From positions 1 through 54,294 of the forward strand of contig MPMZ01000013.1 in NCBI GenBank assembly GCA_002238765.1: a stretch of 54,294 nucleotides of DNA, written 5' to 3'. Positions 13,135-24,814 of the stretch are shown piece after piece. The position numbers and the translations under genes are program-made. The notes beneath the pieces are model-generated. The model searched no databases and was not told the origin of the DNA. It was given only the letters and a program-made list of their open reading frames with translations. Position 1 is the first letter of the stretch. Every line of letters starts with the position of its first letter. This stretch comes from Nitrospira sp. bin75 (lineage in GTDB: Bacteria > Nitrospirota > Nitrospiria > Nitrospirales > UBA8639).

Positions 13135-13250
13135 TACCCCTGTATTTACCCCTGTATTTACCCCTGTATTTACCCCTGTATTTACCCCTGTATTTACCCC
13201 TGTATTTACCCCTGTATTTACCCCTGTATTTACCCCTGTATTTACCCCTG
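13135..13250. repeat. Tandem array of a 12-bp unit, 9.7 copies
   Basis: The unit TACCCCTGTATT repeats without a single mismatch for 116 bp. Read in three frames it gives TPVF, YPCI or, on the other strand, GKYR repeats, so apparent ORFs here are artefacts of the array. Perfect identity implies recent expansion or strong selection. It is flanked by ATTCACC-containing palindromes. Function unknown; protein-binding iterons or replication slippage are options. Confidence 0.9.
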
Positions 13251-13262
13251 ACGCGTGTCAAG

Positions 13263-14461: not shown

Positions 14462-17400
14462 ATGGCTACTCATTCCGATCTGACGTTCATCACTAACGAA
14501 AATGGGCAAAATCTTCTTGAGCGGTTCAAGGTACTGATCAAGGATACCGAATGTTTTGACGTCCTTGTCGGGTACTTCTACACCAGCGGATTCCATGCAC
14601 TTTACCAAGCCCTGGAAAAAACAAGAAAGATCCGAATCCTCATCGGAATCAGCACCAACAAGACAACCCTGGAACTCATAGAACAAGCACGGCAGTCAGA
14701 ATTGCAATTTTCCCACGCGGAAACAAAGGAGCACTTTTCCGATTTGCTGGTCAGTGAAATGACGCAAGCCGAAGACAGCAGCCACGTTGAAGAAGGGGTG
14801 GTCAAATTCTTGGAGTGGCTGCAAAACGGAAGGCTTGAGATCAAGGTGTATCCAACCGAGAACATCCACGCCAAGCTTTACATCATGACTTTCGATGAGG
14901 AAGACAGGGACGCAGGCAGGGTCATTACCGGTTCCAGCAACTTCACGCAATCGGGGTTGGTGGATAACCTTGAATTCAACGTGGAGTTGAAAAACCGTGC
15001 CGACTACGAATTTGCCCGGACAAAATTTGAGGTGCTGTGGGAAAACGCCGTTGACGTCAAAGACAAATACATTGAGACCATCAGAGAAAAAACATGGCTC
15101 AACGACACGATCACCCCCTACGAACTCTACCTCAAATTTCTCTATGAGTATTTCAAGGACGACCTCTATCAAACCGATGAAGTCACGTCCAGATACCTCC
15201 CCGAGGAATTCAAACGCTTGGAATACCAGGAACAGGCTGTCTTGAACGCGAAGAAGATTTTGGACGAATACGGCGGGGTGTTCATTTCAGACGTGGTGGG
15301 CCTCGGGAAGACCTACGTTTCCGCCATGCTGGCGACCCGGCTCGACGGTCGCACGCTGGTCCTGGCCCCACCCGTGCTTTTGGATAAGGCGAACCCCGGC
15401 TCGTGGCCCAATGTCTTTTCAGATTTCCGGGTACCTGCTGATTTTGAGTCGATGGGCAAGCTGGATCATCTCACTCGCAAAGGCACGCAAAAATACAATA
15501 ACGTTTTCATCGACGAAGCGCACCGCTACAGAACGGAATCAAACGTCACCTACGAAAAGATCGCTCAGATCTGCAGAGGCAAAAGAGTCGTGCTGGTGAC
15601 GGCAACCCCGTTCAATAATTCCCCAAAGGATATCCTGAGTCAAATCAAGCTGTTTCAGAATGCAAAAAAAAGCACGATCCCGAACGTCCCCAACCTTGAA
15701 AAATTCTTCGGCACCCTGGAAAAAAAGATCAAGCAATTCGACAGGCAAAGAGACCATGAAGAATACATGCGAACCACCAGGGAAAACGCGCACCTGATTC
15801 GCACGTCCATTTTGAAGTACCTGATGGTCAGAAGAACAAGAAAAGAAATCGAAGACTACTTTGCCGACGACCTGAACAATCAAAATCTGAGCTTCCCGGC
15901 GGTGGAAGACCCTGAACCCCTGTTCTACCAGTTGAACGGGGAAGAAAATGAAATCTTCAACCGGACCGTCGAGTTTCTCACGCAAAGACTCAAATACGCG
16001 CGGTATACGCCCATGCTCTATTACACGGGGGAGGATACACCTGACCAGGCAGAGATACAGGCCCAAAGAAACATGAGCCGCTTTATGAAACTCCTGCTGG
16101 TCAAACGGCTGGATAGCAGCTTTCACGCGTTCCGAAACTCGATTGCCCGTTTCATCTCAAATCACGAACGATTTCTCAGGGAACTTGATAGGGGTAACGT
16201 GTACGTGAGCAAGAAGTACATGAATAAAATCTTCGAACTTTTTGACAACGAGGATGAAGAAGAAGCCATCCAACGACTGCTTGAAAGCGACAAAGCCAAA
16301 AAATATCCGGCTGAAGATTTTAACGACGACCTGAGGAGAGACTTGGACAACGACCTGCAAACCCTGAAGGAAATCCAGGCAATGTGGCTCAAGGTGACCC
16401 GTGATCCCAAACTCCTTGCCTTTGTCAATATCCTTTCTGCTCGGCCCGTCCTAAAAGAAAGCAAGTTGATAGTGTTCACCGAATCCGCGGAAACCGCCGG
16501 CTATCTTGCCAGAAACCTGGAAAAGCAATTCCCCAATGAGGTCCTTGCCTTCACAGGAGCATCCGGCGGGAACGTGCGAGGGACGGTGATTGAAAACTTC
16601 GACGCCCGCGTCCGTGCCCCGAAAGACGATTACAGAATTCTCATCACCACGGAGGTCTTGTCCGAAGGCGTGAACCTGCACCGCTCAAACGTGGTCATCA
16701 ACTACGACATCCCGTGGAATCCGACCCGTCTGATGCAGCGTGTGGGGCGTATTAACCGCGTGGATACGGAGTTTGATAAAATTTACAGCTTCAATTTCTT
16801 CCCGACCGAACAATCCAACGAACAGATAAAACTCAAAGAAGCCGCGGAGGCGAAGATCCACACGTTTATCACGCTGTTGGGCGCCGATGCGCGATTGCTG
16901 ACCGAGGGCGAAGACGTAGAATCACACGAGTTGTTCAACCGCCTGATTTCCAGGAAAACCATTACCGGTGAAGACGAAGGCGAGGAAAGTGAACTGAAAT
17001 ATCTGCAAGTCATCCGGGGCATACGCGACAACGACCCCGATCTATTCGAAAAAGTCAAGCGCCTACCGAAAAAGGCACGCACGGCCAAGAAGTACGGAGG
17101 CGAAGCAAACCAGTTACTGACCTACTTCAGAAAAGGAAAGCTTCAGAAGTTTTTTACGGTCGGTAGAGACGAATCGGAAGAAATTGATTTGATCCGGGCG
17201 GCCGGACAGCTTGAATCCCAAGTGAAAACACCGCGCGAAAACCTGCCCGCCGACTTCTATGACAAACTGGAGAAAAACAAGCAGGCATTCATCTTCGCAA
17301 CGACCGAAGAAGACGTGGAACTCGAAACCCCACGCGGTGGCAGCGACAGTACCATGCAAGTGCTCAAATTTCTCAGGGCTGTCAGAGACTTTCGCCAATA

Positions 17401-17668
17401 CACCGAAGCCCAGGAAACGTATCTCAAACGGGTAATGAATCGGCTTGAAGAAGGCGCATTGCCGAAGCAGACGGCCAAGACCGTGCTCAAGGCCCTGACA
17501 AAAGAATCCAAAACAGGGCAGCCGAACCCGCTCAAGGTGCTCGCGCTTCTGCAAACCAATGTTCCCGAGGAATTTCTGGAAAGTCACATCGCGGAAAGCG
17601 CCGCACACACCGCCGGTCCGAGGGAAGTCATTTTATCCGAATATCTGATTGGCGAAGCAGAACAATGA
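14462..17668 (+). CDS. PLD-nuclease/SF2 helicase fusion
   Basis: A 1068-residue protein. Residues 1-190 form a phospholipase D-like nuclease domain with the half-motif ENIHAKLYI (HxK) followed by GSSNFTQSGL. Residues 240-800 are an SF2/Snf2-like helicase: Walker A in VVGLGKTYVS near 276, DEAH box in FIDEAHRYR near 350, motif III VTATPFNN near 382, and QRVGRINRVD near 758. The rest is charged helical sequence of unknown role. Such proteins accompany type IIG-like methyltransferases in defence islands and may translocate on and cut foreign DNA. Its stop overlaps the fic start (ATGA). No strong ribosome-binding site is seen. Confidence 0.88.
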   Translation: MATHSDLTFITNENGQNLLERFKVLIKDTECFDVLVGYFYTSGFHALYQALEKTRKIRILIGISTNKTTLELIEQARQSELQFSHAETKEHFSDLLVSEMTQAEDSSHVEEGVVKFLEWLQNGRLEIKVYPTENIHAKLYIMTFDEEDRDAGRVITGSSNFTQSGLVDNLEFNVELKNRADYEFARTKFEVLWENAVDVKDKYIETIREKTWLNDTITPYELYLKFLYEYFKDDLYQTDEVTSRYLPEEFKRLEYQEQAVLNAKKILDEYGGVFISDVVGLGKTYVSAMLATRLDGRTLVLAPPVLLDKANPGSWPNVFSDFRVPADFESMGKLDHLTRKGTQKYNNVFIDEAHRYRTESNVTYEKIAQICRGKRVVLVTATPFNNSPKDILSQIKLFQNAKKSTIPNVPNLEKFFGTLEKKIKQFDRQRDHEEYMRTTRENAHLIRTSILKYLMVRRTRKEIEDYFADDLNNQNLSFPAVEDPEPLFYQLNGEENEIFNRTVEFLTQRLKYARYTPMLYYTGEDTPDQAEIQAQRNMSRFMKLLLVKRLDSSFHAFRNSIARFISNHERFLRELDRGNVYVSKKYMNKIFELFDNEDEEEAIQRLLESDKAKKYPAEDFNDDLRRDLDNDLQTLKEIQAMWLKVTRDPKLLAFVNILSARPVLKESKLIVFTESAETAGYLARNLEKQFPNEVLAFTGASGGNVRGTVIENFDARVRAPKDDYRILITTEVLSEGVNLHRSNVVINYDIPWNPTRLMQRVGRINRVDTEFDKIYSFNFFPTEQSNEQIKLKEAAEAKIHTFITLLGADARLLTEGEDVESHELFNRLISRKTITGEDEGEESELKYLQVIRGIRDNDPDLFEKVKRLPKKARTAKKYGGEANQLLTYFRKGKLQKFFTVGRDESEEIDLIRAAGQLESQVKTPRENLPADFYDKLEKNKQAFIFATTEEDVELETPRGGSDSTMQVLKFLRAVRDFRQYTEAQETYLKRVMNRLEEGALPKQTAKTVLKALTKESKTGQPNPLKVLALLQTNVPEEFLESHIAESAAHTAGPREVILSEYLIGEAEQ

Positions 17669-18726
17669 ATTCGTTCCGCAACAACCTCCTACGCGACCAT
17701 GCCATACCCATGAGCACGGTGTGGCTGCTCAACGATATCGCCGAGGCGAAGGGAAAACAGGCATTGTTCACGCGGCAGTCACCCCAAGCACTCAAAGCAC
17801 TCCGCGATACAGCCATCATTCAGAGCGCGGAATCCTCCAACCGCATCGAAGGAGTGACGGTCGCCCCGGCTCGCCTGTACCCGCTGGTGCTCGGTCAATC
17901 CAAACCCCGGGACCGCTCAGAGCAGGAGGTTCAAGACTATCGCCGCGCCTTGAACGAGATTCACTCCCATCACGCCGATCTTTCCATCATGCCGGACACC
18001 TTGCAACGCCTGCATGCCCTTTGCCAATCCACCAGCGGCGACGCGGGCCAATTCAAACGAGTCGATAACGACATCGTAGAATACCTGCCCGGACAAGCCC
18101 CGGTTGTCCGGTTTCGTTGCGTGAAGGCCGAGAAGACTCCGGTGGCGGTAGAAGAACTCTGCTGGCATTACCGGCACGCCCTCAACCAGGAAAATATTCC
18201 GCCGCTCATCGCCATCGCCGCCCTCGTCTTGGATTTCCTCTGCATTCATCCATTCCGGGACGGCAACGGCCGCGTATCCCGACTCCTCACGCTGCTGACA
18301 CTCTATCAGCACGGCTACGAGGTCGGTCGCTACATCAGCCTGGAACGCCTCATTGAGGAATCTCGGGAGGACTACTACGAATGCCTCCGGCTCAGTTCCT
18401 CTCACTGGCACGATGGCAAACACGAACCGACGCCTTGGCTCAATTTTGTGCTCGGGATCATTCGCCGCGCGTACGTCGAGTTGGAAGAACGCGCCGGTCA
18501 GATCAAGGCCCCGCGGGGCACCAAATCCGAGCGGGTGCTCGACGCCATTCGTGCACAACCGGATGAATTTCGCCTGAGCGACCTGGAACGCGCCTGTCCC
18601 GGTGTCGGCCGCGAATGGATTCGCACCCTCTTGGCCGAGTTGAAGAAATCCGGCGACGTGGCATGCACGGGCCGAGGGCCGGGGGCTCGCTGGCGTTTCT
18701 GCAAGAATAAGGGTAGTAACGCTTAA
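17665..18726 (+). CDS. Fic-domain protein (likely AMP transferase)
   Basis: A 353-residue Fic protein. The active-site motif HPFRDGNGRVSR is complete, so transfer of AMP (or another nucleotide) to a target protein is expected. The N-terminal inhibitory helix is present as SAESSNRIEG, the SxxxE(G/N) type, so the enzyme is probably self-restrained (class II). The C-terminal 70 residues look like a winged helix (VLDAIRAQPDEFRLSDLERACP), as in many regulatory Fic proteins. It overlaps the helicase stop by four bases. Downstream is a second, diverged copy of the helicase 3' end, so fic seems to have been inserted between helicase and methyltransferase. Confidence 0.9.
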   Translation: MNSFRNNLLRDHAIPMSTVWLLNDIAEAKGKQALFTRQSPQALKALRDTAIIQSAESSNRIEGVTVAPARLYPLVLGQSKPRDRSEQEVQDYRRALNEIHSHHADLSIMPDTLQRLHALCQSTSGDAGQFKRVDNDIVEYLPGQAPVVRFRCVKAEKTPVAVEELCWHYRHALNQENIPPLIAIAALVLDFLCIHPFRDGNGRVSRLLTLLTLYQHGYEVGRYISLERLIEESREDYYECLRLSSSHWHDGKHEPTPWLNFVLGIIRRAYVELEERAGQIKAPRGTKSERVLDAIRAQPDEFRLSDLERACPGVGREWIRTLLAELKKSGDVACTGRGPGARWRFCKNKGSNA

Positions 18727-18761
18727 ATGAGGGTGGCAATAAGGGTATTATCCGGTACACG

Positions 18762-18808
18762 TTCGGAGCGAGGGAAGTCATCTTATCCGAATATCTCATC
18801 AGTGAATA
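18762..18808 (+). pseudogene. Duplicated 3' tail of a helicase gene (insertion scar)
   Basis: 18769-18799 matches 17619-17649, the end of the helicase gene, in 29 of 31 bases. In frame it reads GAREVILSEYLISE then TAA, against GPREVILSEYLIGEAEQ in the intact gene. It ends immediately before the ATG of the type IIG gene (TAATGG), so it preserves an older helicase/methyltransferase junction on the far side of fic. It is diverged, so it came from a related allele or has aged. Confidence 0.8.
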
Positions 18809-19267
18809 ATGGATAAAGTCGCTGCTCAAAGACTGGTGCGGGAAACGCTCCAAAGTTCCTTTAACAAGGAACGTTTTGTGTCTTTGATCAAAAATCTACT
18901 CAATCACGTTGAAGAAGCGCCGTTCACCTACAAAGGCCAGTACATCTTTGCCGATTTTCGAGACTCAATCAACCTGGTCGAACGCATAGGCAAGTATAAG
19001 GGACCGGACGAGAAGCTGTTTGATATTCTCGTCATCCATCTGAAAAAAGAAACAACGCTGGAACGCGCCAGGACCAAGCAGAGAAATTTCGTTGCCAAAT
19101 ACCTGAAGGGCAGTCGTGGCGGCGTGCTGAAAGACGCGGCGCTGGTGGCGTTCGTCGCACCAGACGGTGAGCACTGGCGATTCTCTTTCATCAAAATGGA
19201 ATACAAGTTCAATGAAAAAGGCAAAGTGAAAGAAGAATTTACCTCGCCCGCCGCTACTCCTTTTTAG
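18809..19267 (+). CDS. Type IIG restriction-modification enzyme, N-terminal part (frameshifted)
   Basis: The first 152 residues of a large Eco57I-like restriction-methyltransferase. The pattern MDKVAAQRLVRETLQSSF, KLFDILVIHLKKETTLERARTKQRNFV and DAALVAFVAPDGEHWRFSFIKMEY is the family N-terminal domain, thought to carry the nuclease function. Near 19240 the frame slips: the protein should continue ARRYSFLVGKNETSHTAQ, found in another frame, but instead ends SPAATPF at a TAG. One missing base near ACCTCGCCCG explains it. Start ATG 18809 follows the helicase-tail scar directly. If real, the break separates the nuclease part from the methylase part. Confidence 0.8.
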   Translation: MDKVAAQRLVRETLQSSFNKERFVSLIKNLLNHVEEAPFTYKGQYIFADFRDSINLVERIGKYKGPDEKLFDILVIHLKKETTLERARTKQRNFVAKYLKGSRGGVLKDAALVAFVAPDGEHWRFSFIKMEYKFNEKGKVKEEFTSPAATPF

Positions 19268-22200
19268 TGGGCAAAAACGAAACCAGCCATACCGCCCAGA
19301 GTCGCCTCCTTCCTCTTCTGTTAGACGACGAGGGGCAACCAACACTCCAAAACATCGAAGACGCCTTCAGTGTTGAGAAAGCCACCAAGGAATTCTTTGA
19401 AAAATATCGAACTCTCTTCATTCAACTTAAAGAAAACTTGGATAAGATAGTCAAAAAAGATCCAAGAATAAAAGCGGAGTTCGAAAACAAGAAAATCGAC
19501 ACAGTTGATTTCGCAAAAAATCTCCTGGGACAGATCGTCTTTCTCTACTTCCTGCAGAAAAAAGGTTGGTTCGGCGTGGGGCGCGATGATGACTGGGATT
19601 CTGGGTCAAAACATTTTTTGCGGGAACTCTTTCAGAAGAAGCACGCCGACTATAAAAACTTTTTTAACGACATTCTGGAGCCGCTGTTTTACGAAGCCCT
19701 ACGAAACGACCGTAGCCACGATGACGATTATTACAGTCGCTTCAACTGCAAAATCCCTTTTCTGAACGGTGGTCTTTTTGACCCCATCGGCCATTACGAC
19801 TGGGTGCATACCGATATCGATCTGCCCAATGCGCTTTTTTCCAACACCCAACTAACTAAAGAAGGTGACACCGGCGACGGCATTCTGGATGTCTTTGACC
19901 GTTACAACTTTACAGTAAGAGAAGACGAACCGCTGGAAAAGGAAGTTGCCATCGATCCGGAACTGCTTGGGAAAGCCTACGAGAAATTCAACGCCATACG
20001 GCCGGACAATTTTGATGAATATCTAATGACGTTGAAGAGTGGCAATAAGGGTGAGGAAAACAAATTTAACAAGAAATACGGTGTCTATTACACTCCGCGT
20101 GAAATTGTTCACTACATGTGTCAGCAGAGCTTAATCAATTATCTGGCGACCGAACTTGAAGACCAGATCGACAAAAACGACCTCGTAACCCTGATCCATA
20201 CCGGCGAACAGGTCAGCGAAAATGAAGCCAGGGTGCTCCGCGAGGGCAGGGAAACCGACACTTATTCACATAAACTGCCGGGAAGCGTCTGCATTCCCGA
20301 GAACGCCGCGCTGATTGACCAAAAATTGTCAGCCATCAACGTGTGCGATCCAGCGGTTGGATCCGGTGCCTTTCCCGTAGGCATGATGAATGAGATTGTC
20401 CGCGCCAGAAGGGTATTGTCTCTTTTTCTCAACGACAAAACCCGAAACGACTATGAGTACAAACGCCACTGCATTGAACATTCGCTCTATGGAGTGGATA
20501 TCGATCCCGGCGCGGTGGAGATAGCCAAACTGCGACTGTGGCTCTCACTGGTAGTGGATGAAACTGATATCAAGAACATCAAGCCGCTGCCAAACCTGGA
20601 TTACCGGATTATGCAGGGAAATAGCTTGCTCACTGAATTTATGGGAATCAACTTTGATGCTGATGAGCCAAGGAACAGTGCACCCTTAATGTTCAAAGAC
20701 AAAACGGATGAATTGATTGAGATGTTTCAGCAAAAAAAAGAAGAATTTCTCAATGAATCCAATGTGTCACGAAAAGCAAAACTAAAAGAAAAGGTTGAAA
20801 ACCTGCTTCTTGAAATTTTTGAAACCAAACTGAGAACCCAGAGAGCAGATTACTTTAGACAACTGGAAAACATTGAAAACAAATATGCGGCATTGCCCAA
20901 TCAAAAAGACCGCGATGAAATGATCAAAAAGGGGAAAGAAAAACTACGCAAAACATCAGGCTTTGACCCTGACACCGCGAAAAGACAACTAAAACAATTC
21001 TCGAGCGACAGGCGAATAAAGCCATTTTTTCTATGGAATCTTTATTTTTCTGAAGTGTTCTACCACAAAGGCGGTTTTGATGTGACGATCGGCAATCCGC
21101 CCTATGTCAGAGCGGATTCGGGCAAACAGCATCTTGAACTGCGTCAGAGTATTAAAGACAGCAAGCAATACGAAACCCTATGGGAAAAGTGGGACTTGTA
21201 TATTCCCTTCATTGAGCGGAGTTACAAACTGCTCAAGCAGAGTGGCTTCACGACAATGATTGTTTCTGATGCCTATTGTCACTCGAAATATGCGCAGAAA
21301 TCACAGAATTGGTTTCTGCAAAATAGCCGGATCCTACGGCTTGACTTCTTCAGCAAGATTCAAATCTTCGAAGCCGCCGTACGAAACGTCACCTATCTCT
21401 TTCAAAAGGCAGATGGCAACCACCATAAACCCGAACGCCGGGTACATGAGCCGAAATTTGGTATCGTCAAGCCGTTGCCAACAGATGAACAATGCAAACT
21501 CACTTATCGGGCGTTTTTCCCGGAAGATGCCGATTTTCAACAGTTCTCAAACCCGACGGTGCTACTCGATAAAATTTGCTACATCACAAAGGGAATGGTC
21601 GTTCATGCCCATGAAAAAAAAGCTCCAGGAGCATTTGAATTAAAAGATTTGGTTGCAGACAAAAAAGACGAACGCCACCCGAACCCCTTTGTTGAAGGGA
21701 AACACCTTGAGAGATGGCTGCCAGGTGAAAATAAATGGCTCGAATGGGGAACGAAACGGGCACCTGACTTGTTTAGTCGTCCAACGTTCCCGGAGATTTA
21801 TAAAGTAAATGCAAAGATACTAATTTTGCGAATTGCCGGTGAAGACGTAAGGGCATGTCTGGATGAAGAACAGCTATTTTGCAATCATACTTTGCTAGTT
21901 TGTGTCCCTTGGCATAGCTTATCCGGCGTTCGTAATAGATCGATCAAAAAATCGACTCGTTACCGTGACGAAAAACCAAAACGCCCAGATCTGCCGCAAC
22001 GGGAAGAACTTGAAGAAACCAGCCGCCGATTTGCAATTAAATTTTTGATTGGCGTGATGAATTCTGCTGCTGCCCATGATTTTCTTCAATCTGTGCGTCG
22101 GAGTAACACTGATCTTTACCCTGACGACTGGAAAAAGTTGCCAATTCCCGACGTGACACCTAAACAACAAACACCGCTCATTGAACTTGTCGATCAAATC

Positions 22201-22332
22201 CTAGACGGCAAACGCACCAACCCGAATGCCGACGTTTCCGCCATCGAAGCCCGGCTTGACCAACTTGTTTGCAAACTCTACGGCCTACCTGCGGAAGAAA
22301 GCGCGTCGATCAAACAAAAAAGCATGGCATGA
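19267..22332 (+). CDS. Type IIG restriction-modification enzyme, methylase and specificity part
   Basis: About 1021 codons continuing the frameshifted gene at 18809; the true frame already opens near 19245 (ARRYSF). It holds the N6-adenine methyltransferase motif I DPAVGSGAF near residue 360, YGVDIDPGAVEIAKLRL, and motif IV NPPYV near 609, then a TaqI-C-like target-recognition region and the typical tail LDQLVCKLYGL. With the upstream part it would total about 1175 residues, normal for the family. GTG 19267 overlapping the TAG could allow restart as a separate methylase. Its stop overlaps the next start (ATGA). AT-richer than the core genome. Confidence 0.85.
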   Translation: MGKNETSHTAQSRLLPLLLDDEGQPTLQNIEDAFSVEKATKEFFEKYRTLFIQLKENLDKIVKKDPRIKAEFENKKIDTVDFAKNLLGQIVFLYFLQKKGWFGVGRDDDWDSGSKHFLRELFQKKHADYKNFFNDILEPLFYEALRNDRSHDDDYYSRFNCKIPFLNGGLFDPIGHYDWVHTDIDLPNALFSNTQLTKEGDTGDGILDVFDRYNFTVREDEPLEKEVAIDPELLGKAYEKFNAIRPDNFDEYLMTLKSGNKGEENKFNKKYGVYYTPREIVHYMCQQSLINYLATELEDQIDKNDLVTLIHTGEQVSENEARVLREGRETDTYSHKLPGSVCIPENAALIDQKLSAINVCDPAVGSGAFPVGMMNEIVRARRVLSLFLNDKTRNDYEYKRHCIEHSLYGVDIDPGAVEIAKLRLWLSLVVDETDIKNIKPLPNLDYRIMQGNSLLTEFMGINFDADEPRNSAPLMFKDKTDELIEMFQQKKEEFLNESNVSRKAKLKEKVENLLLEIFETKLRTQRADYFRQLENIENKYAALPNQKDRDEMIKKGKEKLRKTSGFDPDTAKRQLKQFSSDRRIKPFFLWNLYFSEVFYHKGGFDVTIGNPPYVRADSGKQHLELRQSIKDSKQYETLWEKWDLYIPFIERSYKLLKQSGFTTMIVSDAYCHSKYAQKSQNWFLQNSRILRLDFFSKIQIFEAAVRNVTYLFQKADGNHHKPERRVHEPKFGIVKPLPTDEQCKLTYRAFFPEDADFQQFSNPTVLLDKICYITKGMVVHAHEKKAPGAFELKDLVADKKDERHPNPFVEGKHLERWLPGENKWLEWGTKRAPDLFSRPTFPEIYKVNAKILILRIAGEDVRACLDEEQLFCNHTLLVCVPWHSLSGVRNRSIKKSTRYRDEKPKRPDLPQREELEETSRRFAIKFLIGVMNSAAAHDFLQSVRRSNTDLYPDDWKKLPIPDVTPKQQTPLIELVDQILDGKRTNPNADVSAIEARLDQLVCKLYGLPAEESASIKQKSMA

Positions 22333-24338
22333 AAACAACAATCTCGAAACTGACTACTGCTGACCTGGATGCGATAGATGATCTGATGAAGCAGAACAGT
22401 CATACGCTGGGTTTTCTTACCAGAGAAACCATTCGCAGCCATCTCGAAAAGGAATGCGTGCTAGGAGCCAAGACGGGCAATGATGAACTCGCTGGTTATC
22501 TCCTCTATGCGGCTTACCCAGAGCGTTTCCGTCTTGTCCATCTCTGTGTAAGGGAAGATTTTCGAAGCCAGGGCATCGCAAAGCGTCTTCTTGAGAAGCT
22601 AAAGAATTCTGCTACTACTCAGAAGGTTATTAAGCTTCATTGTCGTCGAGATTTTCCCGCGCACAAAATGTGGGAAAAATTATATTTTGTGCCTTTGGGT
22701 GAAAAAGCAAGTCGCTCCACTACTGGTCACCTTCTGACATTATGGTGTCTTACTCTGGCTCCTAATGATCAATTAAGTTTGTTTCAGGCAAAGACATCGG
22801 ACGACGCTCTCGACGTTGTCATTGATGCCCAAGTTTTCTTTGATTTTTATGAACCGGATAGTGACAAAACTAAGCCATCCAAAGCTCTGCTCGCTGACTT
22901 CTTGGTAGACTCTCTCAATCTTTGCATCACCGAGGAACTGTTCAACGAAATAAATAGGAGTAACGATGCCAAGCGACGTCAAGCATCTCAACAGAGAGCT
23001 TACGAATTCCCGAAGGTAGAACATAATCCACAATCGGCTGAGCACTTTCAAGCCGTCCTAAAAAAGTTGCTCCCAAGCGATAATGAAGCTCAGCAATCAG
23101 ACATTCGACAATTGGCGAAAACTGCCGCCTCTGATGCAGAGATTTTCATTACTCGGGACCAGTCTCTTTTGAAGAAGTCAAAGGAGATTTCCAACTTGAC
23201 GAATCTCCAAGTGTTCTCCCCGACCTACTTGATTCGTCACCTTCATGAACTTTCCGAAAGACAATCCTATGTCCCCACTCGCATTTCAGGCATTGCGCTT
23301 GAATGGCGCCGCTTAATTGTTGATGATCTCGCATCTTTTCGGTTCGAATCTTTCCTCAATCAGAATGAAAGAAAAGGCAAATTCAGAGAGAAATTAGAAC
23401 TCTTTCTCGCAAGTCCAGATCGTTATGAGTGCGAAGGTCTCAGATTGGGGAATGAAATTGTTGCCATTCGAGTTCTCGAAAGTGGTATAGACAAGACGAC
23501 CACCGTACACTTGGGCAGAGTAGCACCATCTGCTGATCGCTCACTATTCGAGTGTTTTTTAGTCACCGATACTGTTGGCAAAGCTGTGAAGGAGAACCGC
23601 TACCTGGTGAAGTTTGAGAAAGCCCTTCTTGCCCCCAGCTTGACACCAAACCTTTTGAAGACAGGATTTATCGAATGCAACGAGAGTTTCGTGAGATTTT
23701 GCTTTGCCCGTTGCCTTGACCGTCAACAAGTATCGTCTATGATTGCTGAATTATGTCCCGAATCCATAAGCAATTATCAGAATATGTCAAATCCTGAGCT
23801 TGAAAGGTGTTGCTCTCCTCTTGGCTTGGAAGGCGCGCACCAGAAGTATTTCTTGATTCCGGTTCGTCCAGGTTACGCGATGAGCCTCGTTGATACGCAT
23901 GGAGCGGCTAACGATTTATTCGGGGGGAAAACCAGTGTATTATTGCGCTGGGACAATGTCTATTATCGAAAGAAGACACACCACAATGTACTTCAACCAC
24001 CGGCCCGTATTTTGTGGTATGTAAGTGGAAGCCAAAAACAAATTGTAGCCGTGTCCTACCTTGACAGCGTTGAAATAGGTGCCGCCAATGCGCTTTTCAA
24101 GAAATTCAAAAAATTCGGGATACTGGAATGGAGAGATTTTGATCAAATGTGTAAAGGCAATCCCTCAAAAGAACTCATGGCATTGCAGTTTTCTCACACG
24201 TTTCCATTTCGAGAGCCAGTATCACTTGAGGCAATGAGAACTGTCTGCAAAAAAGGCATCGTAGTACAAGGTCCATCAAGAATACCGCCAAAAACGTTTT
24301 ATAAATTATTTCAACTAGGATACCCTGACCAGTCATGA
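22329..24338 (+). CDS. GNAT acetyltransferase-PIN nuclease fusion with C-terminal PUA-like region
   Basis: A 669-residue multidomain protein. Residues 1-145 are a GNAT fold with the acetyl-CoA loop RSQGIA (79-84). Residues 160-320 look like a PIN domain: VIDAQVFFD (Asp166), ITEELFNEI, and SDAEIFITRDQSL. The middle part is unassigned. Residues 530-660 (WDNVYYRKKTHHNV, ILWYVSGSQKQIVAVSYL) resemble an EVE/PUA-type modified-base or RNA-binding module. ATG 22329 overlaps the type IIG stop; its own stop overlaps the ASCH gene by four bases. An RNA-directed effector or modifier role is inferred. This domain set is not one I know as a named defence system. Confidence 0.75.
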   Translation: MKTTISKLTTADLDAIDDLMKQNSHTLGFLTRETIRSHLEKECVLGAKTGNDELAGYLLYAAYPERFRLVHLCVREDFRSQGIAKRLLEKLKNSATTQKVIKLHCRRDFPAHKMWEKLYFVPLGEKASRSTTGHLLTLWCLTLAPNDQLSLFQAKTSDDALDVVIDAQVFFDFYEPDSDKTKPSKALLADFLVDSLNLCITEELFNEINRSNDAKRRQASQQRAYEFPKVEHNPQSAEHFQAVLKKLLPSDNEAQQSDIRQLAKTAASDAEIFITRDQSLLKKSKEISNLTNLQVFSPTYLIRHLHELSERQSYVPTRISGIALEWRRLIVDDLASFRFESFLNQNERKGKFREKLELFLASPDRYECEGLRLGNEIVAIRVLESGIDKTTTVHLGRVAPSADRSLFECFLVTDTVGKAVKENRYLVKFEKALLAPSLTPNLLKTGFIECNESFVRFCFARCLDRQQVSSMIAELCPESISNYQNMSNPELERCCSPLGLEGAHQKYFLIPVRPGYAMSLVDTHGAANDLFGGKTSVLLRWDNVYYRKKTHHNVLQPPARILWYVSGSQKQIVAVSYLDSVEIGAANALFKKFKKFGILEWRDFDQMCKGNPSKELMALQFSHTFPFREPVSLEAMRTVCKKGIVVQGPSRIPPKTFYKLFQLGYPDQS

Positions 24339-24814
24339 ACAAGACCTTGCAACCTTTGCTTCTTTCCTTAAAGCCCGACTATGCGGACTTGGTTTTCGAT
24401 GGTCTCAAAGAGGCTGAACTGCGAAGGCGTGTTGCTTCATGTATGGAAAATCGTGACGTGTTTATTTATGTTACCAGTCCGGTCAGGCAACTCCGTGGCG
24501 GCTTTCGTGTTGGACAGGTATGGAGTGGAACCCCCGAGGAAGTATGGAGACAAGTATCCAAACTCGCTCGCGTCGATAAGCGCGATTTCGATGCTTATTA
24601 TGCCGGGCGAACTGTTGCGTATGCTTTGGAAATTACGGATGTTTGGGAATATAAAAACCCCGCAAGCCTAAACAAACTGGGGAATCGATTCCCGGATTTC
24701 GTTGTTCCACAGTCCTGGCGATATGTCAGACCGGAAGAGTACCGCTTATTCCGAAGGATGAAACGTCTGACGAAAAAGTCAGAACCGGCAGGGGCCTTGA
24801 GTGCAGTGGCCTGA
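24335..24814 (+). CDS. ASCH/PUA-like domain protein
   Basis: A 159-residue single-domain protein. The start LLLSLKPDYADLVFDGLKEAELRRR is the ASCH signature, in which a basic groove binds RNA or a nucleotide. GRTVAYALEITDVWEY supplies the central strands. ASCH proteins often sit beside GNAT or PIN genes and have been proposed as RNA-binding or RNase modules. Its ATG overlaps the preceding stop (ATGA), so it is made with the GNAT-PIN protein and may bind the same RNA. Downstream is a relic of a methyltransferase tail. Confidence 0.75.
   Translation: MNKTLQPLLLSLKPDYADLVFDGLKEAELRRRVASCMENRDVFIYVTSPVRQLRGGFRVGQVWSGTPEEVWRQVSKLARVDKRDFDAYYAGRTVAYALEITDVWEYKNPASLNKLGNRFPDFVVPQSWRYVRPEEYRLFRRMKRLTKKSEPAGALSAVA

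What the first reader, a model, noticed from the sequence alone, without database searches (positions are those of the whole stretch)
17619..18808. Copy of the helicase 3' end on the far side of fic
17619-17649 and 18769-18799 share 29 of 31 bases and both encode REVILSEYLI. The second copy ends exactly at the start of the type IIG gene, preserving a helicase-stop/methylase-start junction, while fic starts on the stop of the intact helicase. So fic was gained between two formerly adjacent genes, leaving a scar.
Basis: seen in the sequence. Interest (0 to 1): 0.65.

Follow-up and report, generated by a model that had tools for sequence, protein, structure and literature searches.

The report
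Fic gene insertion scar in restriction locus
A Fic gene slipped in once between two neighbouring restriction genes of Nitrospira and left a decaying copy of the upstream gene's end behind it; this is a clean record of how defence loci pick up extra genes, but an otherwise familiar kind of event.

Summary
The repeat is real: 29/31 bases shared, only two copies in the whole genome, chance expectation about 4e-6. In codon register it extends to an imperfect 57-nt repeat (17600-17656 / 18750-18806). The second copy is a relic. Direct helicase-IIG junctions are the commonest state (48 of 85 resolved loci, many phyla), and the two nearest fic-less relatives (L066, L035) have the same 1-nt stop/start overlap (TAATG) as the scar. 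Six Nitrospira loci, the window included, share helicase tail, fic, scar, IIG; the scar diverges about as fast as synonymous sites and its frame is broken in some. No fic-less locus has the extra tail. Additions: close fic relatives sit beside other restriction genes (type I hsdR, a probable type III methylase), so fic travels on its own; the same junction holds other inserts in 32 loci, often toxin-like genes (HicA, MNT/HepT, NYN, AbiEii, Bro-N, AlbA_2), none with a scar. Whether the two tails are a target duplication or two helicase alleles is undecided. Fic genes inside R-M loci and insertion with long target duplication are already described.

The parts
14462..17668 (+). HKD (PLD)-SNF2 helicase, 1068 aa, intact; ends PREVILSEYLIGEAEQ*
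   Evidence: Pfam Helicase_C, PLDc_2, SNF2-rel; PADLOC C3a139 HKD+Snf2; relatives at 53-90% in many phyla
17600..17656 (+). left copy of the repeat: the helicase end up to the last codon shared with the scar (AAHTAGPREVILSEYLIGE in the window)
17657..17664 (+). GCAGAACA, taken as 5' flank of fic fused to the helicase frame: replaces the TAA stop and adds Ala-Glu-Gln before TGA (inference from comparison with L066, L035 and the scar)
17665..18726 (+). fic, 353 aa, HPFRDGNGR motif, SNRIEG inhibitory-type motif, intact in six loci
   Evidence: Pfam Fic E=1.8e-15; PADLOC SoFic
18706..18749 (+). 3' end and 3' flank of fic with AATAAGGGTA-type repeat units, shared with fic relatives elsewhere: marks where fic-derived DNA ends
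18750..18806 (+). scar: relic of a helicase 3' end (consensus over six loci SAHTFGPREVILSEYLISE), decaying
18807..18811 (+). TAATG: relic helicase stop overlapping the IIG start by one base, as in fic-less L066 and L035
18809..22332 (+). type IIG restriction-methyltransferase gene (Eco57I family), split by a 1-nt frameshift near 19255 into 18809-19267 and 19267-22332
   Evidence: PADLOC REase_MTase_IIG profile positions 1-149 and 159 onward; relatives are open across the site

Best explanation
An HKD-SNF2 helicase gene and a type IIG restriction-methylase gene were directly joined (helicase stop and IIG start overlapping as TAATG). In an ancestor of these Nitrospira loci a fic gene, with its own short flanks, was inserted at the helicase stop codon. 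After the insertion the helicase is intact but ends three codons later, inside fic's 5' flank, and fic starts on that new stop. A copy of the last ~57 nt of a helicase gene stayed between fic and IIG. That copy serves no visible purpose and decays. Shown: repeat, distribution, polarity by the nearest relatives, shared position, decay at a neutral rate, presence of the same fic family beside other restriction genes. Inferred: that it was one event, that the joining at the fic/scar boundary was non-homologous, and that Fic acts as a second-line (protein-modifying) defence or toxin with the restriction system.
For: Direct junctions in 48 of 85 resolved loci. Nearest fic-less relatives of both helicase and IIG are L066 and L035, both with the TAATG overlap, a rare form (3 of the direct junctions). 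The fic group is a clade in both helicase (0.99) and IIG (0.94) trees. Scar in all six fic loci; intergenic divergence 0.08-0.28, fic fourfold sites 0.10-0.24; in-frame stop in L007, frame shifted in L004, L006 and G173 relative to the fic tail. No tail copy in any other locus. fic-derived DNA ends in a repeat also found 3' of 68-70% identical fic genes that lie beside type I hsdR (L168) or other genes (L169), with no such helicase.
Against: Nothing found contradicts gain of fic. But the empty-site form of the same lineage has not been found: the two other Nitrospira loci with this helicase (L008, L010) carry other inserts, so the ancestral state is inferred from L066 and L035, which belong to other phyla.
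Confidence: 0.88

Rival explanations
1. Module exchange (a variant of the best explanation): the helicase end next to fic came with fic from another locus; the scar is the end of the former resident helicase, a different allele.
For: Scar consensus TFG...ISE matches L066 (17/19 aa) better than the local VAG...IGE tail does (15/19). Consensus differences between the two tails lie only outside a 29-nt core (12 of 57 sites; 4e-5 if evenly spread, though the core encodes the family's invariant motif). Allele mosaics do occur: the centre of the L007 helicase is swapped.
Against: Nucleotide identity does not favour L066. Helicase and IIG trees agree, so no wholesale helicase replacement is visible. 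fic relatives elsewhere do not travel with this helicase. Identity of the core at synonymous sites is unexpected for two old alleles.
Confidence: 0.45
2. Single-step insertion with ~57-bp target duplication (the other variant): both tails were identical at insertion and diverged afterwards.
For: The product has the form of an insert flanked by direct copies of the target; the core is identical including synonymous sites. R-M genes are known to insert with long, variable target duplications (PMC3031569, citing Nobusato et al. 2000).
Against: Differences cluster outside the core; the scar resembles L066 in residues (T, F, S) where the local tail differs.
Confidence: 0.42
3. The second copy is kept for a function, for example a short reading frame whose stop TAATG re-couples translation to IIG.
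For: IIG has no clear Shine-Dalgarno site; the last ~20 nt before IIG vary little; in the window and in L005 the repeat frame after fic runs on into REVILSEYLISE* or its equivalent.
Against: That frame is not kept in L004, L006 and G173; L007 has TAG inside; divergence is like fourfold sites.
Confidence: 0.06
4. Chance or convergent similarity through a conserved peptide motif.
For: REVILS.YL is nearly invariant in the family.
Against: Nucleotide identity includes synonymous sites; expectation 4e-6; same place in six loci.
Confidence: 0.01

Closest known systems
Fic/DOC and RhuM-type toxins embedded in R-M neighbourhoods (Anantharaman et al. 2013, PMC3710099)
   Same: A Fic gene inside a restriction locus; companion cargo of the same sort (MNT/HepT, Bro-N/KilA-N, AlbA_2) in sister loci
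   Different: Described there for loci with ABC-HEPN and type I genes; here an HKD-SNF2 helicase with a type IIG gene, and with the insertion scar visible
Insertion of R-M genes with long target duplication (Nobusato et al. 2000, as cited in PMC3031569 and PMC2749054)
   Same: Direct copies of tens of bp of target flank an inserted gene
   Different: There the R-M gene is the insert; here the R-M operon is the target, and the copies differ beyond a 29-nt core
Type-2 BR systems (PMC12839542)
   Same: HKD nuclease fused in front of a Swi2/Snf2 helicase, plus an N6-methyltransferase; Schlafen and MNT-HEPN genes as extra effectors
   Different: No DUF499 ATPase and no DUF3780 among the scanned neighbours; the methylase is a type IIG enzyme
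PADLOC C3a139 (HKD+Snf2) and PDLC03596 (REase_MTase_IIG)
   Same: Best profile matches of the two flanking genes
   Different: Separate models there; here a two-gene unit seen in 85 resolved loci

Membership tests
Fic protein, class II (SoFic-like) | Fic domain with HPFx(D/E)GNGR | tested here: met
   Pfam Fic E=1.8e-15; HPFRDGNGR in the translation
Fic protein, class II (SoFic-like) | N-terminal inhibitory (S/T)xxxE(G/N) | tested here: met
   SNRIEG read in the translation; inspection only
Fic protein, class II (SoFic-like) | AMP transfer to a target | not testable with these tools
   needs biochemistry
Insertion with long target duplication | direct copies of target sequence flank the insert | tested here: met
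   57-nt imperfect copies
Insertion with long target duplication | copies identical at insertion and equal to the single copy of the empty site | tested here: inconclusive
   differences cluster outside a 29-nt core; no empty site of the same lineage found
Type-2 BR system | HKD-helicase fusion with N6-methyltransferase | tested here: met
Type-2 BR system | DUF499 ATPase and DUF3780 in the locus | tested here: not met
   no such domain in the ten ORFs scanned between 9892 and 28546
Type IIG restriction-methyltransferase | nuclease, methylase and specificity parts in one chain | tested here: inconclusive
   PDLC03596 831 bits and Eco57I domain, but the window copy has a frameshift after residue ~148

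The most novel reading that the evidence does not exclude
This fic family is a dedicated mobile cassette that enters restriction operons at gene junctions by an unknown mechanism, with its conserved 3' GGGTAAT repeat element as part of the mobility signal, leaving target copies of tens of bp.
Probability: 0.06. Interest if true: 0.65.

Novelty: new member of a known kind. Interest (0 to 1): 0.32.

Why it matters
The scar fixes the order of events (adjacent genes first, fic later) in a restriction locus, with outgroups and decay, which is seldom possible. With the cargo survey it shows that the helicase-IIG junction is a slot into which toxin-like genes enter again and again, which bears on how layered defence (restriction plus a cell-harming back-up) is assembled.

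Tried and rejected
Chance similarity. DNA-level constraint on the tail: TTA at the REVI[L] codon in 28 of 99 loci versus 15 expected, codons otherwise varied, so no strong DNA constraint. Functional mini-ORF: disfavoured by frame breaks and rates. Tail copies as the general entry route for cargo: none in 32 other inserts. Wholesale helicase replacement: trees congruent. Search for the two-tail DNA or close fic in viral contigs: nothing. Plasmid fic relatives (43-46%) showed no R-M neighbours. RNA fold of the fic 3' repeat: weak, no covariation.

Full report
Observation. The 31-base repeat is present as described: 29 of 31 bases, both copies reading REVILSEYLI, the second ending on the type IIG start. 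It occurs twice in the whole 3.04-Mb genome; the chance expectation for such a pair in the window is about 4e-6. In codon register the homology covers 57 nt, 17600-17656 and 18750-18806; consensus sequences of the two tails over six loci agree in 45 of 57.

What the genes are. The left gene is an HKD (phospholipase D type) nuclease-SNF2 helicase, PADLOC C3a139; the middle gene is a Fic protein with HPFRDGNGR; the right gene is a type IIG restriction-methyltransferase, PDLC03596, broken by one base in the window. The window is from a Nitrospira-type genome: the nearest named relative of the helicase is in Nitrospira sp. RHO3_bin_20, at 90%.

Fic-less loci. Relatives of the helicase were collected from 395 genomes of the phylum and 80 loci of a wider collection, plus viral contigs. 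The C-terminal motif (P/K)REVILS(E/L/M)YL is nearly invariant. Of 85 loci in which both ends are resolved, 48 are direct junctions (gap below 40 nt) and 37 have an insert, five of them fic loci. The two nearest fic-less relatives for both genes are L066 (Opitutaceae MAG) and L035 (Latescibacteria MAG); both have the TAATG overlap seen at the scar. In the helicase and IIG-N-terminus trees the fic loci form a clade (support 0.99 and 0.94).

Fic loci. Six Nitrospira loci have helicase tail, fic, scar and IIG: the window, G356, G187, G199, G065 and G173, where deletions left only the last 44 helicase codons, fic, scar and the first part of IIG next to a tRNA-Leu (the tRNA by inspection). fic is intact in all, at 92-96%. 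The scar is at the same place in all and has drifted: L007 has an in-frame TAG and small length changes shift the frame in others. Intergenic divergence (0.08-0.28) is like that of fourfold sites in fic (0.10-0.24). So the second copy is a relic under no visible constraint.

Boundaries of the insert. On the left, local helicases read ...GGCGAA|GCAGAACAATGA where L035 and the scar read ...GAA|TAATGG: the stop was displaced by the 5' flank of fic, adding Ala-Glu-Gln (inference). On the right, fic is followed by AATAAGGGTA-type units that also follow fic genes at 68-70% identity in other genomes; these units end at about 18749 and the helicase-like sequence begins at about 18750. The insert is therefore fic with its own flanks. 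In G226 the 69% fic lies directly before type I hsdR-, hsdM- and hsdS-like genes, in G018 before a truncated hsdR-like frame, and in G197 before a DNA-methylase gene that looks like type III mod (gene names by inspection of the translations), without this helicase. So this fic is a roaming companion of restriction genes.

Two tails, one open question. The consensus scar (SAHTFGPREVILSEYLISE) and the consensus local tail (AAHVAGPREVILSEYLIGE) differ at 12 of 57 sites, all outside a 29-nt core (4e-5 for an even spread). L066 is closer to the scar in amino acids (17/19 against 15/19) but equally far from both in nucleotides (43/57). This leaves two routes: a target duplication whose copies then diverged, or import of a second helicase end with fic. 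Recombination between helicase alleles does occur in these loci (L007 is mosaic). I rate the two about equal.

Junction as a cargo slot. Inserts at the helicase-IIG junction in other loci encode HicA, NYN, Bro-N, KilA-N, MNT with HepT, AlbA_2/Schlafen-type, AbiEii and an AAA ATPase, often starting on or within a few bases of the helicase stop. None carries a second tail. Fic also occurs just upstream of the helicase in two loci (L030, L031). This agrees with the published picture of toxins and Fic/DOC genes lodged in R-M operons (PMC3710099) and of back-up effectors in BREX-related loci (PMC12839542).

How it most likely works. The helicase-IIG pair restricts unmodified DNA (inferred from the families). 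Fic, kept intact while the DNA next to it drifts, is most likely an adenylyltransferase that acts as a second line or as an addiction element; its inhibitory motif suggests it is held off until needed. None of this was tested here.

Verdict. The event is a well-documented single case of a known kind of process.

Noticed in passing
window 18706-18749; L144-L164 3' of fic: Fic genes of this family in the phylum carry three GGTAAT/GGGTA units at and after the stop codon (consensus GGTAATACCC-TAAAAGAGGGTAATAAAGAGGGTAATA): 47 GGGTA against 1.5 expected in 28 flanks, GGTA nearly invariant; a 27-nt pattern hits 16 of 390 genomes with no hit for the reversed control, mostly at fic ends. Could be an out-of-frame relic of a KEGN/NKGS tail or a DNA/RNA element.
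   Followed up: partly
window 19985: DNA homology among the fic loci stops within 3 bases of 19985 inside the IIG gene in four comparisons: the methylase/specificity half has been exchanged, probably changing the recognition sequence.
   Followed up: partly
window ~19255: A one-base frameshift splits the IIG gene; relatives are open across the site. Real decay or assembly error.
   Followed up: no
L007 / L134 helicase: Mosaic helicase in G065: the centre (residues ~267-890) is mostly 58-81% identical to the window's, against 90-93% over the first ~267 residues.
   Followed up: partly
L129 (G173): Deletion remnant: tRNA-Leu-like sequence, last 44 helicase codons, fic, scar, IIG start joined to the end of a PDC-M11B gene.
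   Followed up: partly
window 13135-13262: 12-bp tandem repeat TACCCCTGTATT (about 10 units; GGGGTA on the other strand) beside an integrase gene.
   Followed up: no
L132 (G378 contig C30): A 50% identical fic with an internal TGA lies between two ~120-bp direct copies of an interspersed element; 38 hits of that element in the genome.
   Followed up: partly
window 22269-24814: A GNAT domain fused to PDC-M11A, then PDC-M11B, follow the IIG gene, then an FRG-TPR gene.
   Followed up: no
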